From Fusobacteriaceae bacterium (GTDB taxonomy: Bacteria > Fusobacteriota > Fusobacteriia > Fusobacteriales > Fusobacteriaceae): a DNA stretch of 35,525 bases. The notes under the pieces are model-generated. The model was not told the DNA's origin and ran no database searches. It saw nothing but the letters and a program-made list of their open reading frames with translations. Below are positions 2,025 through 28,534 of this stretch, one piece after another; positions within the stretch are counted from its first letter, which is position 1, and each line of letters starts with the position of its first letter. The translations under genes were made by a program, and so were the position numbers. The stretch lies in contig JAISST010000006.1 of NCBI GenBank assembly GCA_031272945.1, positions 1 through 35,525 of the forward strand, given 5' to 3'.

Positions 2025-3350
2025 TTGGACACGTATCGTAGTATCTTAGTAATTGCGCTGATTGTGTTGGTGGCGCTGTCCGGATTCTTTTCCGCGGCGG
2101 AAACGGCCCTCACGTCATTCCGCAGTCTGCAACTGGAAAAACTGGAAAACGAACACATGGAAAGGGAAGTGGGACTTTTAAGAAAATGGCTCAAGAGTCC
2201 CAATGCCATGTTGACCAGTATCCTCGTGGGGAATAATGTGGTCAATATCCTCTCTTCGTCCATCGCGACGGTATTGACGGCCAGTGTGTTCGGCGTTTCC
2301 TCAGGCAGATCCATCGTGATCTCCACGGTCGTCATGACCACCATCATCCTGATCTTCGGGGAAATCACCCCCAAAATTATCGCCAAGAATTATTCTCTGA
2401 ATATTGCCAAACGGGTCATCGGCCTCGTTTACATCCTGAGCATCATTACAAAACCGGTCGTGGCGATTTTTATGTTTATTTCAAAGCTCTTCGGCCGCCT
2501 TTGCGGCATCGAACTCAAGGATTCCGCGATTCTCATGACAGAGGAGGACATCATTTCCTTTGTAAACGTCAGCGAGGAAGAGGGGATCATCGAAGAGGAA
2601 GAAAAGGAGATGATCCATTCCATCGTCGGATTTGCGGAGATTACAGCCAAGGAAGTCATGACGCCCCGGACTTCGGTACTGGCTTTCGAAGCGAGCAAGA
2701 CCGTCGACGAGATCTGGGAGGAGATTCTGGAAAACGGCTTTTCCAGGATGCCCGTCTATGAGGATACGATAGACGACGTCATCGGCGTACTCTACATCAA
2801 AGATATTATGCGATCGGTCAAAGAAGGAAAGACAACGGAGCCGGTGAAGAATTTCATCCGTCCGGCCTATTTTATTCCCGAGACGAAATCCATCATTGAA
2901 ATACTCAAAGAATTCCGGACGCAGCACGTCCATATCGCCATGGTCCTGGACGAATACGGGGGCATCGTGGGGATTGTCACCATCGAAGATCTGCTGGAAG
3001 AGATCGTGGGGGACATCCGCGACGAATATGACACGGAAGAAGGGGAAGCCGTGGAAAAAATAGACGACAACAGCTGGCGCGTCGACGCCATGATTGACAT
3101 TGAGACGCTGAACGATGAATTGCAGCTCAATCTGCCCGAATCCGACGACTATGAAAGCCTCGGGGGCTTGATTCTCTCGGAACTGGGCAAAATGGCCAGC
3201 GTAGGCGATGAGATCACGCTGGACGGCGCCCGCCTGAAAGTGATCAGTCTGGACAAAATGCGGGTTTCCCGTGTACTTGTGGAGAAAATCGGCGATCATG
3301 ACGAACAGGATAAAACGGAGGGGGAATCTTCCGGGGAGGTTGCCCAATGA
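2025..3350 (+). CDS. CNNM/CorC-type membrane protein with CBS domains (HlyC/CorC family)
   Basis: This 441-residue inner-membrane protein belongs to the family once called hemolysin C, now linked to Mg2+/Co2+ homeostasis. Residues 1-190 are a DUF21/CNNM transmembrane domain: hydrophobic segments include SILVIALIVLVALSGFF, followed by the conserved SAAETALTS, and later IISTVVMTTIILIFGEITPK. A CBS pair follows (about 205-335), starting at VMTPRTSVLAF and ending near DEYGGIVGIVTIEDLLEEI. Residues 345-430 are the C-terminal transporter-associated domain. The start is a TTG preceded by AAGGAAGG; no ATG fits upstream. The stop overlaps the next gene's start by four bases (ATGA), suggesting translational coupling. 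The transported ion cannot be told from the sequence. Confidence 0.9.
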   Translation: MDTYRSILVIALIVLVALSGFFSAAETALTSFRSLQLEKLENEHMEREVGLLRKWLKSPNAMLTSILVGNNVVNILSSSIATVLTASVFGVSSGRSIVISTVVMTTIILIFGEITPKIIAKNYSLNIAKRVIGLVYILSIITKPVVAIFMFISKLFGRLCGIELKDSAILMTEEDIISFVNVSEEEGIIEEEEKEMIHSIVGFAEITAKEVMTPRTSVLAFEASKTVDEIWEEILENGFSRMPVYEDTIDDVIGVLYIKDIMRSVKEGKTTEPVKNFIRPAYFIPETKSIIEILKEFRTQHVHIAMVLDEYGGIVGIVTIEDLLEEIVGDIRDEYDTEEGEAVEKIDDNSWRVDAMIDIETLNDELQLNLPESDDYESLGGLILSELGKMASVGDEITLDGARLKVISLDKMRVSRVLVEKIGDHDEQDKTEGESSGEVAQ

Positions 3351-3925
3351 TACGGAAATTGGTTTTTTGTATTGTTTTACTGGTTCTTGCAGGCGCGTGT
3401 ACGTCTACGGGCGGCGGAAAGGGAAAGAAACTGGAAACCGGGGATTACGCCTTTATCCGGGGGATGAACCTCTATGAGAAAGACCAAAAACACGAAGCCC
3501 TGGACGAGTATTTGAAAGCGTATCGGAAGACGCCGAAAAACGCGACCCTTGTGCGGGAAATCGCGCTGCTTTACGGAGAATTCGGAGATTACGACCATGC
3601 GCTTGAGTATTTTCAGAAAGCGGAGAAACTGGAGCCCGGAGACCGCAATACCTTGGAAAACCTCGGGTACCTGTACCATAAAAAGGGAGACAACAAAAAG
3701 GCCGCGGCCACATTCGCAAGGATACCCGGCGGCAGCCGCGCCGCCATCGAAAATATCCTCCGGGAGGGAGGGGCGGAGGACGACTCTCTCTATGCCCTGC
3801 TGACAAGACTCTACCTGAATGTAGGAGAAAAGGAAAACGCCCGGAATTCTTTCCGGCTCGTTTCCGACCGTTACCAAGGAACTGAGGATTATAAGGAATT
3901 GGCTGTGTTGACGCACAGACCCTAG
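3347..3925 (+). CDS. TPR-repeat lipoprotein
   Basis: This is a 192-residue protein with a short basic N-terminus, a hydrophobic stretch and a lipobox-like LAGAC, with the probable lipidated cysteine at C18 and a Gly/Lys-rich tether after it. Residues 35-130 contain tetratricopeptide repeats; the pattern is clearest in HALEYFQKAEKLEPGD and TLENLGYLYHKKGDNKKAAATF. TPR proteins act as binding scaffolds, and this one is likely anchored to the inner or outer membrane facing the periplasm. The start ATG overlaps the stop of the CNNM gene, and spoT follows 16 bases later. Specific partners cannot be inferred. The residue at -3 of the lipobox is Ala rather than Leu, so the lipidation call is moderately sure. 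Confidence 0.78.
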   Translation: MIRKLVFCIVLLVLAGACTSTGGGKGKKLETGDYAFIRGMNLYEKDQKHEALDEYLKAYRKTPKNATLVREIALLYGEFGDYDHALEYFQKAEKLEPGDRNTLENLGYLYHKKGDNKKAAATFARIPGGSRAAIENILREGGAEDDSLYALLTRLYLNVGEKENARNSFRLVSDRYQGTEDYKELAVLTHRP

Positions 3926-16751: not shown

Positions 16752-16792
16752 AATAGACCTCACATTTTCTTGCTGAATAATCACATCAATAA

Positions 16793-16821
16793 ATCATAGC
16801 ACAAACAGACAAAAATTTCAA
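16793..16821 (-). promoter_or_regulatory. Sigma70-type promoter of trpS
   Basis: On the minus strand TTGAAA (16821-16816) and TATGAT (16798-16793) are separated by exactly 17 bases. Transcription would start near 16786, about 35 bases before the start codon. There is no room for a T-box leader. Confidence 0.75.
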
Positions 16822-16934
16822 TCGATAAAATCCGGGGAGGTGGTTTTCGTATCTTCCCCCGCGCCTTTGGGATTCCGTGCCAAGTGATTTCAAAGAATAT
16901 GTCATCCCCCGCCTTATTGGAAAAATCTCCCGGA

Positions 16935-16969
16935 TTTTGAAAAAGCGCCCCCGCAAATCTTTTTCAAAA
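16935..16969. repeat. Perfect 11-bp inverted repeat upstream of the autotransporter promoter
   Basis: TTTTGAAAAAG (16935-16945) and CTTTTTCAAAA (16959-16969) are exact reverse complements separated by 13 bases. It lies in the divergent region between trpS and the autotransporter, about 80 bases upstream of the latter's -35. It could be a regulator-binding site or an unidentified terminator; the rest of 16822-17047 shows no gene. Confidence 0.5.
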
Positions 16970-17047
16970 AACGTTGTCACACAAAAATTGTTTCATTTTT
17001 CGGTACGAATGTCCACGACGGGGGTCTAAAATTTCTTATTGTACGTC

Positions 17048-17076
17048 TTGAATTTACACAAAAAAAGGAGTAAGAT
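17048..17076 (+). promoter_or_regulatory. Sigma70-type promoter of the autotransporter
   Basis: TTGAAT (17048-17053) and TAAGAT (17071-17076) are separated by 17 bases. The start would be near 17083, giving a leader of about 250 bases before the ATG at 17332. Confidence 0.6.
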
Positions 17077-17155
17077 TCGCTTATGGGAGACGATACGCCG
17101 TCAGGGTATCGCGAAAAAGGTCGGGTCTTTTTGTTTTTGTTGATCAGAGAGAATA

Positions 17156-17190
17156 CGACTGAACCAGTCGGTTTTATGGGCGCAGCCCAT
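17156..17190 (+). other. Tandem hairpins in the autotransporter leader
   Basis: Two perfect six-base-pair hairpins with three-base loops are side by side. The first is CGACTG-AAC-CAGTCG (17156-17170) followed by GTTTT. The second is ATGGGC-GCA-GCCCAT (17176-17190). The first plus its T run resembles a weak attenuator. Confidence 0.5.
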
Positions 17191-17234
17191 TGGAAATACC
17201 CCAATCTTATTATCTACCGGATGGAAGAAATCAA

Positions 17235-17295
17235 CCGGCGACGCGCAAACGTTAACCGGAGGGGAAAACCCACAGCGAACGTAGGATTTCGCCGG
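17235..17295 (+). other. Nested stem structure in the autotransporter leader
   Basis: Three nested stems can be drawn: CCGGCGA (17235-17241) with TCGCCGG (17289-17295), ACGTT (17249-17253) with AACGT (17278-17282), and GGG (17262-17264) with CCC (17269-17271) closing an AAAA loop. The arrangement is aptamer-like, but it matches no riboswitch consensus I can recall with confidence. Confidence 0.45.
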
Positions 17296-17308
17296 AGCAT
17301 TTCGGAAA

Positions 17309-17327
17309 TCCCCCCGTCTAGGAGGGA
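17309..17327 (+). promoter_or_regulatory. Hairpin covering the Shine-Dalgarno site of the autotransporter
   Basis: TCCCCCC (17309-17315) can pair with GGAGGGA (17321-17327), leaving the loop GTCTA and one C-A mismatch. The right arm is the ribosome binding site for the ATG at 17332, so the folded form would hide it. Confidence 0.6.
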
Positions 17328-17331
17328 GACA

Positions 17332-17889
17332 ATGGATTATAACTTGAAAAAAGCGTCCGAGAAAGCGCTCAAAACTTTTCTCAAAAAGAAACAACAAGGT
17401 TATACCTTGAGTCTTTTGGTCACATTTTTAATTACGGGAGCGATTTCGTTATTTGCGGGCTGGACAGCGCCCCCGGCGGCGGAACCCGATCCGGCCGTCG
17501 TTGATGAAACGCCCGCCCCTTCTGACGACCCGTCGCAAGATGTGGCGTCCATGGAAAAGGAATTGCGGGCGAAATTGGTCGACAACGAGCAAAAACTCAT
17601 CGCCCTTCGTCGCAAGGAGAATCTCCTTCTTCACGAGGCCGACTGGTACAGTAAGCCCGTCTGGCTCACGACGACCGGGGGTCTTTTGGCATCCTGGAAG
17701 TCTTCCGACAGCGCGCCGGACCGTTGGGTGCGTCCCAACCGGCGGAATACGGACATGGATTTGGACAGGGAGCGATATGAGGCCGCGGCGGCCCTTCGGG
17801 GTAGCGGGGGGGGGTACCCTATACCGTCACAGGCTCCGAACCGCTTGAATCCGGCTCTGACAACGAGTGGTTTTCCACGGGCTGGTTGA
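17332..17889 (+). CDS. Autotransporter N-terminal part (frame upstream of the G9 tract)
   Basis: As the sequence stands, this frame yields a 185-residue protein. Residues 1-50 are an extended signal region: a basic helix (SEKALKTFLKKKQQGY), a hydrophobic core (SLLVTFLITGAISLFAG) and a cleavage region near GWTAPPA. After a Pro/Asp-rich stretch, residues 68-95 are a heptad-like helix (MEKELRAKLVDNEQKLIALR), and then YSKPVWLTTTGGLLASW. This order matches the conserved N-terminal domain of large fusobacterial autotransporters. Codons 159-161 are GGG GGG GGG; beyond them the frame reads an unrelated tail to TGA at 17887. The ATG at 17332 has GGAGGG at seven bases. A longer frame from 17083 exists but its extra 83 residues look like untranslated leader. 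The true product needs the downstream frame. Confidence 0.85.
   Translation: MDYNLKKASEKALKTFLKKKQQGYTLSLLVTFLITGAISLFAGWTAPPAAEPDPAVVDETPAPSDDPSQDVASMEKELRAKLVDNEQKLIALRRKENLLLHEADWYSKPVWLTTTGGLLASWKSSDSAPDRWVRPNRRNTDMDLDRERYEAAAALRGSGGGYPIPSQAPNRLNPALTTSGFPRAG
17806..17814 (+). repeat. Nine-G homopolymer at the frame break
   Basis: This is the longest G run in the window. The upstream frame is open until TGA at 17887-17889, and the downstream frame is closed by TAG at 17802-17804. The two therefore overlap only between 17805 and 17886, and the tract sits inside that overlap. One G more, or two fewer, fuses the frames. Confidence 0.9.
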
Positions 17890-20800
17890 CGGGAAATTCG
17901 TATTTCAACGCCAACACGACCCGCTACGATTATAAGGATGAATTTATGACATTGGCTGCCACAGCCCAGCCCGCGACGTCAAGACCCGAGACGCCGCAAT
18001 TTTTGTTTGCCGCCCCCGATACGCCCGATGTGCAGGAATTGAAGGAACCTGAGGTTTTGCTGATTAAAATCGGGGATATTGATGTGAAGAAGCCTGCCGT
18101 GGTAAAGCCGGAACCGGCGAAAATCGATGAGATTAAGGCGCCGGGCTTCGCGGGGATTTCCGTGAAAGAGCCGGATTTGAAGCTGGCCTCATTTGAGGTG
18201 GAGGTGAATCCGGCCGCGCCGGAGTTTGAGGTTAAGGCCAGTTTGCCGGTGGTGAAGGGGAAGGTGATTGCGCCTACGACGGTGGCGGACCCGAATCCAC
18301 AGGTTCCTGACCTGAATCCGGTGGTGGTGCAGCCCAATGTAAGTCCTTTTACGGATTACGCTTATTGGTATGTAAGAACATCCAGTAATGGCGGTTATCC
18401 CTTCACCTATTTGGCGGATGGCTCTGCGGGTGGTAAAACGGCGTTACTCATGAATTATCATTTCACAGGGGGTACTTATTACACGGGCGTCGCCAAAAGC
18501 ACCGCGGAAGGGGGAGCTGTTGTCAAAGCGAACGAGGCCGGCGGCTTCGGCATGAGCGGTACAAGCGACGCGTTTTATGGTCAAAACGGTGTTAGCTGGA
18601 CCGCTTTTCCGACGACGTCCCTTGCGATTAACGGACGAACTTCCACGATACTTTATTTTCACAATTTATTGTTATATCCGAATTCACCCAAACAAGTCGA
18701 AAATGTAACGCTCCATGTGGCCGGAAATGACGGCTCTTATACGGATACAAACGGCTTGAGTTATCTCGGCTCCATTGGAATGCATACGGCGGGACATTTG
18801 AATGTAACCGGCGTCACGGGGTATTTATACGGCCGGGCTATTTTTGTTTCCAACGAAACCTGGCAAGCCGGCGATGTGAAGCTGGCAAACAGCCAAGTGC
18901 ACGTGTCCGGCTCCGATAATACGGTTTTTTATATTTCTCCGGCAAATTACACGGATATCCAAACCCGGGCGGCTCGATATCAAGGCAGCTACACAGGCGC
19001 AATGGACGTCGTGATTCCGTCTAAAGGGAACGCCGTCTATTTGCAGGCGGGTCTCTCGGGAAGCATCAAAATCGAAAACAGCGGGCTGATTCGGCTGGAA
19101 GGCGCTTCCAATACGGTTTATACCACCTTGGGTTATTCTCCGAATTATACGAAGTTTACCGCCCACGGCGTCACTTATGAAGAAAATATGACGCCCTCCA
19201 TCCAATTGACCACGCCGGTGGAACTTTACGGCGACGAAAACGTTCTGATGTTTTTCAATTCCAAATGGACGGGAAAGCTGCCGTGGATTTATAACGGCAG
19301 CGGAGACGACAAACCTTTTATCGGCATTTATCAGGGACAAATCAAAGTGGCGGCCCATATCGGCGACGGTCCCCAGACCAATATCACGGCGTCGGAGCAG
19401 ACGGCCGAAGGCCGGATTACTGAAAAAGAAAATTCGACCTATAATTATACGGCCGGCACAGTAGACGGCAGCGTGGGAATCTATTCCCGTTCGGGCCAGA
19501 GGACAGGCATCAGCGCCCAGTTGCACTTGGGGGCCGGTTCGACTTACAGCTATTATGACGGAGACGCGATTCACGGCCTGGAAATCGGCAACGTCGATAT
19601 CAAATTCGGCCGCAATTCCAAAGGCGGCTTTATGTTTATCTCCGACCTCGGAACCGTCATCGAGGTCGCGAAGCCCGGAACCGATACCTCTGAAATCGGC
19701 TCCCTTTCCACAGCCATCTTTGACGGCATCGACAAAATCGTCGACAACAAAATCACGGAGGGCGAGGCGGCCACAGGGACCATTATCGCTTATTCCAAGG
19801 GCAAATGGGACCAGTCGGTTCATAAATTGGGCACGAGCGGCGTATTGGACGCTACGGATTCCAGTCTGACCAATCTCGTGGATAAACCCTCGGAAATCAA
19901 CATCTATATTCCCGTTACTATGACCTCCATGGAAGGCATCGGCTTCTTTGCCGACAGTTACGGCCACGTCAACGTTGTGGGCTCCACCTCCAACGTGACG
20001 GCCACGGGTTACCGGGCCATCGTGGCCTACGCGAAAAACTACGGCGTAGTAACCATTGACGGGAATATTACAGCTCAGGACGCTCACATGACGACAAACG
20101 TTTATCAAAATATCGGGGCCTACGCTGCGGCAAACGGGACCATCACGATCAAGGGCGCGGCTACGGTAGACGGCATAGGCGCTCTGGCCAAGGGGACCGG
20201 GGCCCATGTGATCATGACCAACGGCGGAAATCAAATCTTTACCGGCGTCGACCGGGGCGGCAGCTACAAATCAAACGGCGGTCTTGTGGCGCTTAACGGC
20301 GGAATTATCGAATTCGCCGGGGTCATCACTCACAAGAAACTCACGGAATACGCGAGCAAAGGCAATACCCACGCCGATACGCTTCCCTTCTATGCCGACA
20401 GCGCCTCCAAAATCGTGTTCCGGGGAGACACGACCATAAACCTCTCCGACGGCGCGGTCTTTTACGGAAAAGAAAACGAATATACCTCCGAAGACACGCT
20501 GGCCACGCGTTACAGCGGCATGAAATACGTGACGGTCAATATTACCGATAACGATCTTTCATTGGGCGTTTTCAACGGCATAACGGTGGACTGGAGCGGG
20601 GCCGATATCACGGCCGTGGAGACAAAGTATCTGAAGCAATTGGCCGATACCGTCAAAATCAAAGAAATCAAGAACAACAGCCATTGGTACAAGAGCTACC
20701 TTGAAGGCGGCGTCTTCAATATCGGCTTCAATGTCAACCTCGACACGGTTTCCTTGAACGCCACAAAAGGCGCTGACCCCTTCAACGACATCGTTCTTGA

Positions 20801-23800
20801 GCGGGAAAAAGTTGCAATCGCAAACGGCGTGACCGTCTCTTCGGCTCAGGGGAACGGCCTGGCCCTGGCCTCCAATATCAACGCCAACGCGGGCGCGGGA
20901 AAAAACCAGGACAGCGGCTTTACCAACGCCGGGACCATTTCTGTTACCGGCGGCAACCAGAGCGCGGTCTATGTCAATTACGGCTATGTGAAGAATTCCG
21001 GCCTTATTTCCGCTGACAAGGGCATCGGCGCCATGGGCGTCAACGGCAGCCAGCTCGTAAACACCGGAACCATCAAGGTCGAGGGAAAGGACGCCGCCAA
21101 AGGCGCGGGTCCCATCGGCATGGCGGGCCTCGCCCGGAAGGTCAAGGCCGACGGCTCGGCCGACGCGGCGGACGCCTTCGGAACCGACGTGACCACAGGC
21201 GCCGATCAGGACAATACCACGGCTCTCGTGGATATCGAGAATAACGGGACCATCCGTCTCGGGAGCGATACGAAACTCTCGGATTACGCCGTCGGCATTT
21301 ACGCGGCCAACAACGTGGCGGGCGCCCGGGCCCGGGTCAAGGTCGTCAATAACCGCTTGATTGAGTTAGGCAACGACAGCGTCGGCGTCCTCGTCTCGGG
21401 GGCGACCGAAGGGGGGACGATTACCCTTTCCACAAACGATGCCCAGAATATCGGTCTGAAGTTAGGCAAAAACGGCATCGGCGTCTACGCCGAAAACTCG
21501 GATATCACCGTAAACGGCGCCAGTTACACGATCGCCCTGGAGGATAACGGCATAGGCGTTCTGGCCCGTCTCGACAGTACCATCAAGGGCGGCGCCGGCG
21601 CGAAGCTCATCCTCGACTACAAGGGGACCGTAGACGGCACGGCCACGGCGGTCGTATTGCAGGGGGAAGCGGGAAAGACCGCCACAAACAATCTCGCCAT
21701 TGAAGTCAAAGCCCCCGCGGACATGAAAAAAACCGTCTCGGCCCTTTACAGCTCGGGAGGCGGCGGTCTCGTCAATACCGGCGCCCTGACATCCGCCGCC
21801 GCAAAGGCCTACGGGATTATCGCCGACTGCGTCGATGTGAGCAATTCCGGCGTCATTACGACAGGGAACCCCACCGGAGACGGCGGCATCGGCATTTATG
21901 TCCGGAACGCCGACCTTACGACCGGCGGGGACAAATTGCAGGTCAAGGGAACCGGGGCCATCGGCGTATTCGCCAGGAGCGAAGCCCCGAAGCAGACGGA
22001 AGCGGCCCTCGCGGCGGCAAAGACCGTCACCCTTTCGGATAATACGACCCTTGCCGTCACCGAAAACAAAGGCATCGGCGTCTATATTTTAGACAGCCTC
22101 GGCGATAAAATGAAGCTCAATCTCAAGAGCGACGTGAACCTGACGGCGGCCTCGGCCGATACAAACCGCAAAATCGGAGCCTTCCTGCAGGGAGCGAAAA
22201 ATACCGGCAATCTCGCCGACGGCGTCATTACGCTCGCGGGCACAGATACCGGAGGCTACAACATCGGGGTCTACGCCAAGGACTCCTATCTCAATACAAA
22301 CGGGACTTACCATATATCAGGATTGTCCAATATCGGCGTATTCGCCGAATCCACGGGAACGGGGACGACCCTCGTCACGGGCGGCGTCGCGGTCAATGTA
22401 GCGGGCAGTACGACAAAAGCCGGAGATATATCCATCGGCGTCTACGGCAAAGGGTCCAAGGTGGCGATTCAAGCGGCAACAGCCGCCACTTACACCGTGG
22501 GGCCCAACGGCGTCGGCGTCTTTATGGACGGAGACGCAAGCTCCAAACTCTCGGGAACTTACGTGATTCATCTTTCGTCCAAGGGCGTGAGCGAGACCGA
22601 AGGCATAGGGATTTATTACAAAGGCGGCGCAAGCGGGCAGGGGACTGTCACCCTGGACAGTACCTTGACCGAATCCAAGGACGGTCTTCCGGTACGGCCC
22701 ATCGGCATCTATTTCGGCGAGGGAAGTACGGTCCAGCCGCAGGATATCACGATTGCCGCGGGAAGCCAGAGCCTTATCGGGCTCTATGGCAAGGATTTGA
22801 GCGCCTTTAACGCAACCGGCAAGCTCCAGCTGAGCGCCGAATCCATCGGGGGCTATTTTACGGGAAGTAATGTCAACGTAAACGGCAATACAACCCTCGG
22901 CGCCACGGCCGAAAACGCCTACGGCTGGTACTTCAAGGACGGGAATTCCACAATCGGCGCGGCAACCGTAAGCACCATACTCGGCAAGAACGGTATCGCC
23001 TACGCCATCGAAGGCGCGGGCGGCAAACTGACCAACAAAGGGACCATCCAGGCCTCCGTGGCCGGTTCCATCGGAGCCTTCGCGACGGAAGGCGGGCTTT
23101 TCACCAACGATGTCGGCGCGCAAATCAACGCCACGGCCGTGAATGGCGCGGATCCGGGTTCTCTGGGACTCTTTGCCAAAGGGGGGAAAATCGAAAACAA
23201 AGGACAGGTCAATTCCTTCTATGTGGGTATCTACGGCCAGAGCGCGGCGGATATTCTGCTTTCGGCGGGAGAAGTCACGGCGGCTCAGGGTATCGGCATT
23301 TTAGCCAAAGACAAGGGCACGGCCATACGACTTACGGGCGGCGATATCAAAGGCACAAGCGCCGGCACCGTAGGCGTCTACGCCCTAGATAACGCGGAGG
23401 CGACCTTGGCGGGCAGCAAACTGACCATAGCCGATAAAGGCATCGGCCTTTACGCCACAGGCGGGGCCGCGTTGACGCTCAAAAACGGCGACATCACAGT
23501 CGGCGCCGAAGGAGCGGCCCTCTACGGAAAAGAGAGCGTTCTCGACCTTTCGGCCTATACGGGGACCATCACCCTCGGCAACAAAGGGATTGCCGTATAC
23601 GCGGCGGAGAGCGCCGTCACAGGCGGCAGCGCCGTTAAGGTCAGCTACAGTTCCGCAGGCGGCGATAAAGGCGTCGGCGTCTACTATGAGGGCGCGAATC
23701 CCACGACCAATAGCTTAAGCTTTACCCACAGCGGCGACAATCTGGTAAGCGTCTACGCCGACGGCGTGAAACTCACAAATACGGCCAACCAGACGATCCA

Positions 23801-26800
23801 GAACCTCGGGATCGGCATTTACGCCGATAACGGAGCGACGTTGGCCAATACCGGAACCTTGAATCTCCTGGGAACCGATACCGTAGGGATTTATCTCGAT
23901 AAGACAAAAGCCGCGACCGCTGGCGTCACGACCCTGACCGACGTCGGGACCATCACGGGAGCGGCGTTGAACGTCGCGGGCAAGAGCAAGGTGGGCGTCT
24001 ACGTAAAAGACGGCGACATCATCGGGACCAATGACTACAACTTCGCCATTTCCGGAGGCGTGGGCCTCTATCTGGCGGAAAAGCTTGTGAGCTGGCAGGG
24101 CACGCTGAAGGTGGGCGCGTCCTCCACGGCCAACAACAAGACCATCGGCATGTACGTCGCGCCGAAACTCTCGGGGACTCTGGCGGCCAATATCGAAATT
24201 ACCGCCCCGGACGCCGTGGGCATGTACCTCGACAGCGACGGAGCCGACAAGGCGACGATCAATTATACGGGCAGCTTGAAGATTTTAAACAAAGCACCCA
24301 ATATCGAGAGTCGCAGTATCGGCGTGGTCCTTGACGAAGGGACGCAGTTTACCCTCACGGGAAGCGGCAGTCTGGAACTGGGCGACGCGGAAAACGTCGG
24401 GTTTTACGTTCGGAAAGGCGCGCATTTCACGGTAGCCTCAGGGGCGAAAATCACAAACCTTGAGGGCGGCATTGTCGCCTATATCGAAGACGGACAAATG
24501 GATCTTTCGGGCCTGCCGACGGTCAATTACGCCAATATGATCGCGGCGGGAACTTCGGGCCTTCTCACAAACGCATCCAAGCTCACCGTAGGCACGAAGG
24601 GTCTCCAGGCCAATACGGGGGCGACCATCGTGAACGACACGGCGGGAAATCTTGTTTCCTCCGTTGAAAACGGCAAGGCCTTGGCGGCAACCTCGGGGGC
24701 AACCATCGTGAACCGGGGAAAAATCAACCTCACGGGGGAAAATTCCGTTGCGATTTTTGTCGATGACGGGGCCACGGCCACAACCACCGGCGCGGTTTCC
24801 GTAGGAGAAAATTCCGTCGCCTATTACGCGGCTTCCGACGGCGCGGGAAGCCGCGGCGTCATCACCGTTGCCGGGATCACTACAGTCGGCAAAGGCAGTA
24901 CGCTCCTTTACGCCAAAGGCGGCGAAATTCATTACAAAGCCGGGAATATCAGCCTGGGCGACGCGGGAAACATCCTGACGATAGAAGACGCCGGTTCCGT
25001 CGTGACCTTCCTGAACAGCGCCCTGACTGTCGGGGCCAAAGGTACGGGCATTTACGTCAAGGGTACGGGCGACATCAATGACGTCTCGGGCGTAACGGGT
25101 ATTACCGTCGGAGCCGGAGGCGCGGGGGTCTATATCAGCCGAGGCAACAACTGGACGACTGGCCTCGGTTTCACCCTTGCCGGTGAAAAGGCCTCGGCCC
25201 TCGTCATGGCGGGCGCGGGAAATATACAATACGGCGGGATCTTGAGTTCCACCGCCAAAGAAGCCAAGGGCATCGTCCTCACGGCCGGAGGAAATCTCAC
25301 CAATACCGGAACCGTATCCCTGACGGGCGAAGGCTCTCTGGGTCTTTACGGAGAAAACCTGACGTCCCTCGTCAATGACACGGGCGCCCTCGTGGCCCTC
25401 GGCGCGGGGACCGATACGGCGGCCGCCATCGCCCTTTACGGAAAGAACGCCCACGATATTGTAAACCGCGGAGAAATTTCGCTAGTCAGCAACGCCGTGG
25501 GGATTTACGGGGAAAAAGCCGCGGTCCGGAATGACGGCGCCATCCACAACGCCGGCCATGACAATACCGGCGTCTACGCGGTGGGCGGCAGCGTCGTCAA
25601 TACCGGAGCGATTACCCTCGGCGACACGTCCAACGGCATCTATCTTGAAAACGGAACAAAAATCGAAAACAGCGGCAATATCACTGTGGGCGGCGCGGGT
25701 TCCTCGGGCCTCTACGGCACGGGGACGACGACCGTCCTCCACAAGGCGGGGACCGTTACCGTAGGAGCCGAATCTACCGGCGTCGCCACGGAAGCGGGGG
25801 CCATCACCATAGCCAAAGGCGCGAAAATCACAGCGGGCGAGCAGTCCACCTATATCTATACGGAAAAGGGCGCAGCGACCTTGGAAGAAGACTTGACCCT
25901 TTCCGACTACAGCATCGGCATGTATACCACGGCGGGGACGCTCACCAACAAAGCCCGGATTACCACGGGGCTTTCCGGCGACAGCAGCTCCGACGGAAAG
26001 ACCTCGGTCGCCATGGCGGCGGGACCGGGCGCAGGCAAACGCGCCCTCGTCAACGCGGGCGTCATCGACGTCGCGAAAAAAGGCGGCGTGGGCATGCTCG
26101 TCAGCAACAAGGATTCCACGGCCCTCAATACCGGAACAATCTACGTGGCGGGAACGGACGCCTACGGCGTGGTTGCCTCCGACAACGCCGCGATTACCAA
26201 TCAGGGCGATATCTATGTGACGGGCTCCGGCGCCCGGGGCATGGCGGCCACAGGCGGCGCCAGGGTTCTCAATGATACGAGCGGCCGGGTTTATGTGCAG
26301 GGCGATAACAACACCGGGGTATTTGTGACCGACAAAGCCGTCGTTTCCAACAAAGGCGAAATCTTTGCGGACGGCAATACCAATACCGGCATCTTTATCG
26401 GCCGGGGCGGCGTCCTTGAAAACGCGGGCAAAATCACCGTCATGAACGGCGGCCTCGACGTCGCCACGACCGGCGCCAATGAGACGGTCCATGTGGGCGA
26501 GATCACCGTCGAAAGCCAGGGGCCTACCATCACCGTGGGTAGTACCGTCTACGACATGCCGACCATCGTGAATTCCGGCTATATCGAATTCGTAAACGGC
26601 GCGCTGGACTTCGGTACGGTGGCCATCACCAGCGCCGATGAAAACATCGGGACCATCTCGGCCGAAAACTTCCTCAAGGGAGAGTTCATCGTGCTGCCCG
26701 GGGCGACTCAGGGCAACAACGATCCGGTCCGGGTCATCCAGTACCTGAAGGGTCTGGGCTCCATGCCTCAGAGCGGTTCTGTCAAAGTGATTTCCCAGTC

Positions 26801-27977
26801 CGTGACCTGGCTGCCGGACCTCCAGGCCGACCCCGACAACCCCGACGTCACCCGGATTGTATTGGTCAAAATTCCCTATGCCTTCATTACGGAAAATACC
26901 CCCGCTTATGAATTCGGCAAGGGCCTCGACGAGATTTACGCCAATGCCCAAGGACCGGAGCTCGCCATGTTTGACAACATCGATATGATTTCCGACAAAG
27001 ACGAGCTGGCCGCGGTCTTCGACATGGAACTGCGGGGAAACGTCTACGCCAATATCCAGCAAAGAATGCTGGACGTAAAAGATGTCCTCACAGACGCCCG
27101 GGAAAACTTGCGGGAAAATGAGCTCTATTCCATGGAAACCCTGAAGATCGGCGCCATAGCCGCGGGCGGCAATACCAAAGACGCCAACGCCGGCGTCGAA
27201 GACTACGAATACAAGACCGCGGGCGTAACAGCGCTGAAAGAATACGCCCTCCGCAGCCCCGATACCAAAGCCTGGTGGGGCATGGCCTTCGGCGTGACGG
27301 ATCTCGATTTCGATTTCGGCTCCAAGGAAAAAATCTACAGTCTCGAAGGGAGCGCCGGATACAGCAGACCCCTCACCCGAGACAGACGCCTTCAGTGGCA
27401 TGTCCAGGGGGCCATCGGCGTCAACCGGCACGAGACCCTAAGAAAAATCGAAATCGGCGGGGTGGGCTACCACAACAAAGGAGACTTCTACTCGGCCATC
27501 GGAGAGATTGAAAACAAGCTCCGCTATGAGATGAAGAGCCTGGGCGGCCGGGTAAAAGCGGGGCTCTACGCGAGCTTTGACGCGGGAGTCGGCAAAATCA
27601 AAACCTTTACCGAAAAAGGGGACGGCATCGAGCTTGGCTTCAAAGAAAAGGATCTGACGATCGCGAGACCCGGCGCGGGCGCCGACATTACCTTGAACAA
27701 ATACACAAAGGGCGGCAAACTCTCCCTGACAGGCAAAGTGGACTACTTTCATGAACTGGGCAAGATCTACGACGGCCCCAACGAAATGAAAATCGCGGCT
27801 TCAAACGCGGACTACTACGCCCTCGAGCTTCCCGAACAGAGCAAAAATCAAGTGAAGCTGACCGCTCAGATCAAATACGAAAGCAAGGGCGGTACAAGCG
27901 TTGGATTGCAGGTCACAAGGACCGAAGGCGGCATAGACAGCACGCGGTACGGGATGAATTTCGCGGTCAAAATTTAA
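17886..27977 (+). CDS. Giant autotransporter: passenger and beta-barrel (frame downstream of the G9 tract)
   Basis: This frame continues the protein begun at 17332. Reading it from the tract (from 17814 after a one-base backward shift) gives VPYTVTGSEPLESGSDNEWF leading into NSYFNANTTRYDY, so the joined protein is about 3548 residues. Next comes a Pro/Lys/Val-rich linker (about residues 215-340 of the fusion), then a passenger of roughly 2800 residues. The passenger is built of short repeats such as 'N.G.I....', 'IGVYA', 'GIGIYGK' and 'NTGTI', as in right-handed beta-helix surface proteins. An alpha-helical linker (AVFDMELRGNVYANIQQR, about 3230-3265) precedes a C-terminal beta-barrel of about 280 residues with alternating strands (AWWGMAFGV, RLQWHVQGAIG, GGRVKAGLYASFDAGVG) ending in NFAVKI. 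It would be secreted by type V secretion and displayed on the surface, probably as an adhesin. The frame has no ATG with a ribosome site and no signal peptide of its own. Binding target is unknown. Confidence 0.9.
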   Translation: MTGNSYFNANTTRYDYKDEFMTLAATAQPATSRPETPQFLFAAPDTPDVQELKEPEVLLIKIGDIDVKKPAVVKPEPAKIDEIKAPGFAGISVKEPDLKLASFEVEVNPAAPEFEVKASLPVVKGKVIAPTTVADPNPQVPDLNPVVVQPNVSPFTDYAYWYVRTSSNGGYPFTYLADGSAGGKTALLMNYHFTGGTYYTGVAKSTAEGGAVVKANEAGGFGMSGTSDAFYGQNGVSWTAFPTTSLAINGRTSTILYFHNLLLYPNSPKQVENVTLHVAGNDGSYTDTNGLSYLGSIGMHTAGHLNVTGVTGYLYGRAIFVSNETWQAGDVKLANSQVHVSGSDNTVFYISPANYTDIQTRAARYQGSYTGAMDVVIPSKGNAVYLQAGLSGSIKIENSGLIRLEGASNTVYTTLGYSPNYTKFTAHGVTYEENMTPSIQLTTPVELYGDENVLMFFNSKWTGKLPWIYNGSGDDKPFIGIYQGQIKVAAHIGDGPQTNITASEQTAEGRITEKENSTYNYTAGTVDGSVGIYSRSGQRTGISAQLHLGAGSTYSYYDGDAIHGLEIGNVDIKFGRNSKGGFMFISDLGTVIEVAKPGTDTSEIGSLSTAIFDGIDKIVDNKITEGEAATGTIIAYSKGKWDQSVHKLGTSGVLDATDSSLTNLVDKPSEINIYIPVTMTSMEGIGFFADSYGHVNVVGSTSNVTATGYRAIVAYAKNYGVVTIDGNITAQDAHMTTNVYQNIGAYAAANGTITIKGAATVDGIGALAKGTGAHVIMTNGGNQIFTGVDRGGSYKSNGGLVALNGGIIEFAGVITHKKLTEYASKGNTHADTLPFYADSASKIVFRGDTTINLSDGAVFYGKENEYTSEDTLATRYSGMKYVTVNITDNDLSLGVFNGITVDWSGADITAVETKYLKQLADTVKIKEIKNNSHWYKSYLEGGVFNIGFNVNLDTVSLNATKGADPFNDIVLEREKVAIANGVTVSSAQGNGLALASNINANAGAGKNQDSGFTNAGTISVTGGNQSAVYVNYGYVKNSGLISADKGIGAMGVNGSQLVNTGTIKVEGKDAAKGAGPIGMAGLARKVKADGSADAADAFGTDVTTGADQDNTTALVDIENNGTIRLGSDTKLSDYAVGIYAANNVAGARARVKVVNNRLIELGNDSVGVLVSGATEGGTITLSTNDAQNIGLKLGKNGIGVYAENSDITVNGASYTIALEDNGIGVLARLDSTIKGGAGAKLILDYKGTVDGTATAVVLQGEAGKTATNNLAIEVKAPADMKKTVSALYSSGGGGLVNTGALTSAAAKAYGIIADCVDVSNSGVITTGNPTGDGGIGIYVRNADLTTGGDKLQVKGTGAIGVFARSEAPKQTEAALAAAKTVTLSDNTTLAVTENKGIGVYILDSLGDKMKLNLKSDVNLTAASADTNRKIGAFLQGAKNTGNLADGVITLAGTDTGGYNIGVYAKDSYLNTNGTYHISGLSNIGVFAESTGTGTTLVTGGVAVNVAGSTTKAGDISIGVYGKGSKVAIQAATAATYTVGPNGVGVFMDGDASSKLSGTYVIHLSSKGVSETEGIGIYYKGGASGQGTVTLDSTLTESKDGLPVRPIGIYFGEGSTVQPQDITIAAGSQSLIGLYGKDLSAFNATGKLQLSAESIGGYFTGSNVNVNGNTTLGATAENAYGWYFKDGNSTIGAATVSTILGKNGIAYAIEGAGGKLTNKGTIQASVAGSIGAFATEGGLFTNDVGAQINATAVNGADPGSLGLFAKGGKIENKGQVNSFYVGIYGQSAADILLSAGEVTAAQGIGILAKDKGTAIRLTGGDIKGTSAGTVGVYALDNAEATLAGSKLTIADKGIGLYATGGAALTLKNGDITVGAEGAALYGKESVLDLSAYTGTITLGNKGIAVYAAESAVTGGSAVKVSYSSAGGDKGVGVYYEGANPTTNSLSFTHSGDNLVSVYADGVKLTNTANQTIQNLGIGIYADNGATLANTGTLNLLGTDTVGIYLDKTKAATAGVTTLTDVGTITGAALNVAGKSKVGVYVKDGDIIGTNDYNFAISGGVGLYLAEKLVSWQGTLKVGASSTANNKTIGMYVAPKLSGTLAANIEITAPDAVGMYLDSDGADKATINYTGSLKILNKAPNIESRSIGVVLDEGTQFTLTGSGSLELGDAENVGFYVRKGAHFTVASGAKITNLEGGIVAYIEDGQMDLSGLPTVNYANMIAAGTSGLLTNASKLTVGTKGLQANTGATIVNDTAGNLVSSVENGKALAATSGATIVNRGKINLTGENSVAIFVDDGATATTTGAVSVGENSVAYYAASDGAGSRGVITVAGITTVGKGSTLLYAKGGEIHYKAGNISLGDAGNILTIEDAGSVVTFLNSALTVGAKGTGIYVKGTGDINDVSGVTGITVGAGGAGVYISRGNNWTTGLGFTLAGEKASALVMAGAGNIQYGGILSSTAKEAKGIVLTAGGNLTNTGTVSLTGEGSLGLYGENLTSLVNDTGALVALGAGTDTAAAIALYGKNAHDIVNRGEISLVSNAVGIYGEKAAVRNDGAIHNAGHDNTGVYAVGGSVVNTGAITLGDTSNGIYLENGTKIENSGNITVGGAGSSGLYGTGTTTVLHKAGTVTVGAESTGVATEAGAITIAKGAKITAGEQSTYIYTEKGAATLEEDLTLSDYSIGMYTTAGTLTNKARITTGLSGDSSSDGKTSVAMAAGPGAGKRALVNAGVIDVAKKGGVGMLVSNKDSTALNTGTIYVAGTDAYGVVASDNAAITNQGDIYVTGSGARGMAATGGARVLNDTSGRVYVQGDNNTGVFVTDKAVVSNKGEIFADGNTNTGIFIGRGGVLENAGKITVMNGGLDVATTGANETVHVGEITVESQGPTITVGSTVYDMPTIVNSGYIEFVNGALDFGTVAITSADENIGTISAENFLKGEFIVLPGATQGNNDPVRVIQYLKGLGSMPQSGSVKVISQSVTWLPDLQADPDNPDVTRIVLVKIPYAFITENTPAYEFGKGLDEIYANAQGPELAMFDNIDMISDKDELAAVFDMELRGNVYANIQQRMLDVKDVLTDARENLRENELYSMETLKIGAIAAGGNTKDANAGVEDYEYKTAGVTALKEYALRSPDTKAWWGMAFGVTDLDFDFGSKEKIYSLEGSAGYSRPLTRDRRLQWHVQGAIGVNRHETLRKIEIGGVGYHNKGDFYSAIGEIENKLRYEMKSLGGRVKAGLYASFDAGVGKIKTFTEKGDGIELGFKEKDLTIARPGAGADITLNKYTKGGKLSLTGKVDYFHELGKIYDGPNEMKIAASNADYYALELPEQSKNQVKLTAQIKYESKGGTSVGLQVTRTEGGIDSTRYGMNFAVKI

Positions 27978-27979
27978 CG

Positions 27980-28044
27980 CCCGTAGGGGCGCGCATTGCG
28001 CGTCCTCACTACCATATAAATTGCGCGTCCTCACCACCATATAA
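27980..28044. repeat. REP-like head and a 25-bp direct repeat
   Basis: CCCGTAGGGGC (27980-27990) starts a GC-rich intergenic element. It is followed by two tandem copies of a 25-bp unit beginning ATTGCGCGTCCTCAC (27995-28019 and 28020-28044), differing at one base. No gene is seen here. Confidence 0.7.
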
Positions 28045-28082
28045 TATGAATTGACGCCGATTTTAACAAAAAATCATTTTCA

Positions 28083-28116
28083 CCCGTAGGGGCAGACCTG
28101 TGTGTCTGCCCCTACG
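28083..28116. repeat. REP-like palindrome
   Basis: CGTAGGGGCAGAC (28085-28097) and GTCTGCCCCTACG (28104-28116) are a perfect 13-bp inverted repeat with a six-base loop. The head CCCGTAGGGGC is the same as at 27980. Palindromes of this GTAGGGGC type are dispersed in intergenic regions of many bacteria. Confidence 0.8.
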
Positions 28117-28230
28117 TCCGTCCAAACATCTGCCCCTACGTCCGTCCAAACATCTGCCCCTATGTCCGTCCGGACATCTGCCCCTACGTCCGTCCAAACA
28201 TCTGCCCCTACGTCCGTCCGGATGTCTGCC
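28105..28230. repeat. 24-bp tandem repeat array, five units plus a remnant
   Basis: Units start at 28105, 28129, 28153, 28177 and 28201. The core is TCTGCCCCTACGTCC followed by GTCC and AAACA or GGACA/GGATG. A degenerate sixth start (TCTGCC) is at 28225. Units 1, 2 and 4 are identical; units 3 and 5 carry GG in place of AA. The first unit overlaps the right arm of the adjacent palindrome. A minus-strand frame encodes an eight-residue repeat here but is unlikely to be a gene. Confidence 0.85.
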
Positions 28231-28260
28231 TCGATATTTTTAATGCAACCGGATTTTGAC

Positions 28261-28383
28261 ATTGCGCCCACGCCCTAACCCGCAATGGTAGGGGCGTAAT
28301 CGCGACTTCTTACGTTCGCGCAGCGAATGTTAGAAGGCCGCGATGTCTCGGCGGCAGCAAGCGTAGCGAGCCACAGCCGAGAC
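28261..28383. repeat. Further palindromic intergenic elements (two long hairpins)
   Basis: ATTGCG (28261) and CGCAAT (28281) flank a CGCCCTA, with a GTAGGGGCG motif right after. Next comes a large hairpin, 28299-28344: ATCGCG/CGCGAT on the outside and a 14-bp inner stem (28306-28319 with 28323-28336, one mismatch, one wobble, loop GCA). A third hairpin has GTCTCGGC (28345-28352) and GCCGAGAC (28376-28383), followed by TGATCTTTT. They may act together as a terminator for the autotransporter transcript, or be mobile REP/MITE-like units. Confidence 0.65.
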
Positions 28384-28456
28384 TGATCTTTTCGCCCGGT
28401 CCTCAGGAAAGTTAATTTTTTTAAAGAATAAGACCGAAGAAGAACATAAAAAAAAT

Positions 28457-28485
28457 TTGCTTTTTGCCCACATATGTGTTATATT
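28457..28485 (+). promoter_or_regulatory. Sigma70-type promoter of the mgl operon
   Basis: TTGCTT (28457-28462) and TATATT (28480-28485) are 17 bases apart. A perfect ten-base palindrome, CACATATGTG (28469-28478), fills the spacer, a position where a repressor would block RNA polymerase. The transcription start would be near 28492. Confidence 0.7.
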
Positions 28486-28534
28486 ACTAATTAGCAGTGA
28501 ATTATCTGTACATTGGTTACAATTATATTATAAA

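What the first reader, a model, noticed from the sequence alone, without database searches (positions are those of the whole stretch)
17332..27977. A giant autotransporter gene with a G9 tract at its frame break: probable phase-variable surface protein
Seen: the frame from 17332 encodes the signal region and coiled coil typical of fusobacterial autotransporters, and the frame after the tract encodes the linker, passenger and barrel. Neither half works alone: the second has no signal peptide and no start site. They overlap only at 17805-17886, and the nine-G run lies there. Adding one G, or removing two, gives one protein of about 3548 residues. Known: poly-G tracts of this size switch surface genes by slipped-strand mispairing in Campylobacter, Helicobacter and Neisseria. 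Inference: this copy is in the OFF state. I do not recall this mechanism being described for an autotransporter of this family. Alternatives are ribosomal -1 slippage on the G run, transcriptional slippage, a decayed gene or a sequencing error. The rest of the 10-kb frame is intact, which argues against old decay.
Basis: partly seen in the sequence, partly recalled or inferred. Interest (0 to 1): 0.87.

Follow-up and report, generated by a model that had tools for sequence, protein, structure and literature searches.

The report
Poly-G switch in giant surface adhesin
A fusobacterium carries a 10.6-kb surface-adhesin gene whose reading frame breaks exactly at a run of nine Gs, and because its closest known homologue and many other surface genes in the same bacterial family carry similar G-runs at frame breaks or promoters, it is most likely switched on and off by slippage at that run.

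Summary
ORF 17332-17889 carries the fusobacterial autotransporter N-terminus. A second frame, open 17805-27977, carries linker, passenger and a RadD-like barrel. The frames overlap in only 82 nt (17805-17886), and the only homopolymer of 8 or more in the gene, G9 at 17806-17814, lies there. Homologues align to frame 1 up to the tract and to frame 2 after it, so this was one protein.

No second allele was found, so switching is not shown directly. Comparative support is strong. The best homologue found (G002, same genus; 41.7% identity over 3522 aa) has its own G11 at a frame break, in the signal peptide. The sister species' only G>=9 tract is a G12 at a frame break in a DNA methylase. Elsewhere in the family, G9-G15 tracts lie in or upstream of trimeric autotransporters, TonB receptors, type III methylases and acyltransferases, with lengths differing between near-identical paralogues.

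Against: G9 arises in about 4% of synonymous shuffles, G8 occurs in intact ordinary genes here, and tract-less broken autotransporters occur in relatives.

Verdict: probable phase-variable RadD-like type Va autotransporter, assembled out of frame. The mechanism is known and was suggested for fusobacterial autotransporters in 2005: a new member of a known kind.

The parts
17320..17325 (+). Shine-Dalgarno-like AGGAGG before ATG 17332
   Evidence: read directly
17332..17889 (+). First frame: signal/anchor region and coiled coil (fuso_auto_Nterm domain), reading through the tract into a premature stop at 17887-17889
17806..17814 (+). G9 tract, at the left edge of the 82-nt overlap of the two frames, in the hypervariable linker between the N-terminal domain and the conserved STGWL...NTTRYDY motif
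17805..27977 (+). Second frame: linker, passenger of about 2800 residues and barrel; no signal peptide and no plausible start of its own
26340..27977 (+). C-terminal RadD-like translocator (model NF049908 positions 2960-3478)
   Evidence: no PDB sequence relative of its last 332 residues at E<=0.1

Best explanation
The locus is a contingency gene. It encodes a RadD-like giant type Va autotransporter, and a poly-G tract near its 5' end sets whether the signal-bearing N-terminus is in frame with the passenger and barrel. Slipped-strand mispairing during replication changes tract length, so cells switch between making the about 3,550-residue surface protein and making only a short N-terminal fragment. 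The assembled sequence is in the out-of-frame (OFF) state. Shown here: the two half-frames are one ancestral protein, they change frame within 82 nt that include the only long homopolymer of the gene, the rest is intact, and related genes carry poly-G tracts at equivalent control points. Inferred: actual length variation of this tract, reversibility, and adhesin function.
For: 1) Homologues with one continuous frame (own C96; G001, G002, G003, G019) align to frame 1 before the tract and frame 2 after it. 2) The best homologue found, G002:C105 (same genus, 41.7% identity over 3522 aa, 2304 bits), has G11 inside the signal peptide, with the frame broken there and 3525 aa open after it; its autotransporter loci are AT-rich (31-35% GC), so G11 is very unlikely by chance. 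3) The sister species G001 has one G>=9 tract: G12 at a frame break in a DNA methylase. 4) In four other family genomes (G007, G010, G019, G022) all 14 G>=9 tracts lie on the sense strand in, or within about 0.5 kb upstream of, surface-protein genes: 8 trimeric autotransporters, 4 TonB receptors, 1 haemagglutinin-repeat protein, 1 probable lipoprotein. In G007, 3 of 5 tracts lie 107 nt before the open frames of NF033175-matching genes (naive P about 2e-8). 5) Tract length varies between near-identical copies: G9, G10 and G12 upstream of three paralogous adhesins in one single-contig genome; G9 and G12 at the same broken site in two type III mod orthologues. 6) No second lesion in 10.2 kb after the break; neutral divergence of 0.5% would leave an intact frame with P about 0.002 on the assumption of 1 indel per 10 substitutions.
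Against: No second allele of this tract was found, and no population or read data were available. G9 is near the lower limit for slippage (general knowledge) and G8 runs are found in intact ordinary genes of this genome. The tract is not conserved in intact paralogues. Broken autotransporters without any tract exist in G019, G055, G059, G060 and G061, so plain breakage has a real base rate. The assembly has G-rich artefact-like contig ends.
Confidence: 0.72

Rival explanations
1. Recent pseudogene: one indel at the G run inactivated the gene, with no selection for switching; the tract is only the weakest point of the gene.
For: Broken copies of this family without tracts exist in single-contig genomes of relatives. 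The gene is accessory: the syntenic trpS to binding-protein interval holds proS in G001 and about 300 bp without a gene in G002. G>=9 appears in 3.8% of synonymous shuffles.
Against: The 10.2-kb remainder is free of lesions, so the break is very recent or still reversible. The nearest homologue independently has a poly-G frame break. A tract unstable enough to break is also unstable enough to revert.
Confidence: 0.15
2. Sequencing or assembly error in a homopolymer: the real gene is in frame.
For: Fragmented assembly (159 contigs) with G-rich, error-like contig ends; no reads available.
Against: The tract is inside a 35.5-kb contig, not at an end. Other G8 runs in this assembly sit in intact frames, so the assembly does not generally mis-size G runs.
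Confidence: 0.08
3. Ribosomal or transcriptional slippage on the G run produces a constant fraction of full-length protein from the fixed sequence.
For: A run of G is slippery in principle; the two frames overlap at the tract.
Against: No unusual structure downstream (fold z-score -1.05). The tract is not conserved in homologues. The frame relation differs between this gene (offset 2) and its G002 homologue (offset 1), unlike a programmed site with one fixed direction.
Confidence: 0.05

Closest known systems
RadD (NF049908), giant type Va adhesin of Fusobacterium nucleatum
   Same: Similar length (about 3,500 aa), C-terminal part homologous over about 520 residues, N-terminal fuso_auto_Nterm-type domain
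   Different: 279.7 bits against a 3500-bit equivalog cut-off, so not RadD itself; a neighbouring rapA/rapB/fad-I operon was not looked for; frame broken at G9
G002:C105 autotransporter (L158) of a same-genus genome; another contig of that genome is JAITPM010000013.1, 'MAG: Fusobacteriaceae bacterium isolate Pq454_bin26'
   Same: Best homologue found; giant autotransporter out of frame at a poly-G tract near its 5' end
   Different: G11 in the signal peptide instead of G9 in the linker after the N-terminal domain
Lav autotransporter of Haemophilus/Neisseria (PMC9022572)
   Same: Autotransporter switched by the length of a repeat tract at its locus, predominantly found OFF
   Different: Tetranucleotide GCAA repeat, studied experimentally; no kinship claimed
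Poly-G contingency genes of Campylobacter and Neisseria (PMC6321876, PMC3639595, PMC3786947)
   Same: Poly-G in coding sequence or promoter of surface genes
   Different: Length variation shown there; here only inferred, and in another phylum

Membership tests
SSR (poly-G) phase-variable gene | Long homopolymer at a site where its length sets the reading frame | tested here: met
   G9 at 17806-17814 in the 82-nt overlap of the two frames
SSR (poly-G) phase-variable gene | Halves form one protein in relatives | tested here: met
   alignment to intact homologues
SSR (poly-G) phase-variable gene | Tract length varies within the species | not testable with these tools
   one copy, one genome per species, no reads
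SSR (poly-G) phase-variable gene | Expression switches reversibly | not testable with these tools
   needs culture or population sequencing
SSR (poly-G) phase-variable gene | Related genes carry comparable tracts at control points | tested here: met
   L158 G11; family-wide tracts
Fusobacterial type Va autotransporter (RadD-like) | fuso_auto_Nterm domain (NF033175) | tested here: inconclusive
   41.6 bits, E 1.1e-10, below the 55-bit cut-off; an intact paralogue also scores below it (47.2)
Fusobacterial type Va autotransporter (RadD-like) | RadD-type C-terminal translocator | tested here: met
   NF049908 C-terminal match, E 2.8e-83
RadD equivalog | Full-length score above 3500 bits | tested here: not met
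   279.7 bits

The most novel reading that the evidence does not exclude
Fusobacteriaceae as a whole use poly-G contingency loci, of both reading-frame and promoter type, covering giant type Va autotransporters, trimeric autotransporters, TonB receptors, DNA methylases and cell-surface acyltransferases; the window gene is one member of that unrecognised phasome.
Probability: 0.65. Interest if true: 0.66.

Novelty: new member of a known kind. Interest (0 to 1): 0.55.

Why it matters
If giant autotransporters and other surface proteins of fusobacteria are switched by poly-G tracts, then the presence of an adhesin gene does not predict its expression, annotated 'pseudogenes' may be OFF alleles, and strain differences in adhesion become testable by simply sequencing tract lengths. 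It would also extend poly-G contingency loci to a phylum where, in the papers found here, phase variation of surface proteins has only been suggested.

Tried and rejected
An orthologue at the same locus in sister species, to compare tract lengths: the gene is absent there. A second allele within the assembly: none. Other G>=9 runs of the own genome as further contingency loci: rejected, since three are near contig ends with artefact-like or non-coding context and one is an intergenic hairpin. Programmed frameshifting: no unusual structure, no conservation. A PDB relative of the barrel by sequence: none. No structure prediction was run, as it would not bear on the switch.

Full report
OBSERVATION. 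The window is contig C47 of a 2.02-Mb, 159-contig genome (G000); a same-genus genome (G002) is titled Fusobacteriaceae bacterium. The G9 run is at 17806-17814. The frame from ATG 17332, preceded by AGGAGG, runs into a stop at 17887-17889. The second frame opens at 17805, directly after a TAG, and is stop-free to 27977, whereas its two alternative frames hold 136 and 77 stops. The frames share only 17805-17886, so the change of frame is confined to 82 nt with the tract at the left edge.

WHAT IT ENCODES. The first half matches the fusobacterial autotransporter N-terminal domain NF033175 (41.6 bits, below cut-off) and the second half the C-terminal part of the RadD adhesin model NF049908. Intact homologues in the same genome (C96, 3480 aa), in the same genus and in other genera align to frame 1 up to the residues before the tract and to frame 2 shortly after it, through the shared motif STGWL...NTTRYDY. 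The tract lies in a hypervariable linker between these conserved blocks. The two halves are one protein.

IS THE TRACT SPECIAL? It is the only run of 7 or more G in the gene, and no other homopolymer reaches 8. Synonymous shuffling gives a run of 9 or more in 3.8% of trials. At 53% GC, G8 runs occur in ordinary intact genes of this genome. The tract alone is therefore modest evidence; its place at the break is what counts.

RELATED GENES. The nearest homologue found, in same-genus genome G002 (41.7% identity over 3522 aa), has a G11 tract in the signal peptide. The N-terminus is in one frame and 3525 codons of passenger and barrel are in another. The offset between frames differs from that of the window gene, as expected for random tract lengths and not for a programmed shift. 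The sister species G001 (93% identity in the tRNA synthetase next to the window gene) has one G>=9 tract, G12, at a frame break in a DNA methylase.

FAMILY SURVEY. Of 61 genomes of the family, 35 hold G>=9 runs. I fetched 40 regions. In G007, G010, G019 and G022 all 14 tracts lie on the sense strand in, or within about 0.5 kb upstream of, genes for surface proteins: trimeric autotransporters (8), TonB receptors (4), a haemagglutinin-repeat protein and a probable lipoprotein. The hits are partly paralogous, so the naive probabilities overstate independence. Tract lengths differ between near-identical sequences: G10, G9 and G12 upstream of three adhesins in one single-contig genome, and G9 and G12 at the same frame break in two type III methylase genes. 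Other genera add tracts at methylases, O-acyltransferases and hexapeptide transferases, the classical contingency-gene classes. Some tracts lie in unrelated genes (amino-acid kinase, phosphoesterase, DUF554), so not every tract is a switch.

AGAINST. Broken autotransporters without tracts are found in G019, G055, G059, G060 and G061, so decay has a real base rate. The gene is accessory: the sister species lack it at this place. No second allele was found. The absence of any further lesion in 10.2 kb argues that the break is very recent or reversible: at 0.5% neutral divergence, with an assumed 1 indel per 10 substitutions, an intact frame has probability about 0.002.

LITERATURE. Potential phase variation of F. 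nucleatum autotransporters was raised by Desvaux et al. 2005, as cited in PMC6346709, which also states that none had been demonstrated for trimeric ones; PMC12940168 cites the same paper for two-partner systems. I did not read the 2005 paper itself. Lav (PMC9022572) is an experimentally studied phase-variable autotransporter with a different repeat. I found no paper describing poly-G contingency loci in Fusobacteriaceae, in a library limited to open-licence papers.

VERDICT. Probable phase-variable RadD-like type Va autotransporter, assembled in the OFF state (0.72). Rivals: recent pseudogene 0.15, assembly error 0.08, slippage-based expression 0.05. It is a known mechanism in a new family member, with a wider unrecognised phasome as the more interesting reading.

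Noticed in passing
L153, L154, L155 (G007), 107 nt upstream of the open frames: Three paralogous YadA-type adhesin genes share a near-identical upstream region that differs in poly-G length (G10, G9, G12): a promoter-type contingency candidate.
   Followed up: partly
L156 (G007); L173, L174, L175 (G019): TonB-dependent receptors with G10-G12 encoding Gly residues near the N-terminus; those translated here are in frame.
   Followed up: partly
L176 (G052), L180 (G055): Type III mod methylase orthologues broken at the same poly-G site, with G9 and G12: candidate phasevarions in this family.
   Followed up: partly
L159/L102 (G001:C9:42177): DNA methylase (DPPYGT motif) out of frame at a G12 tract in the sister species.
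   Followed up: partly
L165 (G010), L171 (G067): Poly-G tracts forming the spacer between perfect TTGACA and TATAAT hexamers (19 and 18 nt).
   Followed up: no
L073, L077 (G019, G061); L076, L078, L084 (G060, G059): Giant autotransporter genes broken by single in-frame stops or frameshifts without any long tract, in single-contig or near-complete genomes.
   Followed up: partly
G000:C99 end, G000:C141 end; L168 (G021:C23 end, G77): Poly-G at or near contig ends, probably read artefacts of the assemblies.
   Followed up: no
window 16784-28497 versus L095, L096: The interval between the tRNA-synthetase gene and the sugar-binding-protein gene is variable: giant autotransporter here, proS-like gene in G001, about 300 bp in G002.
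   Followed up: yes
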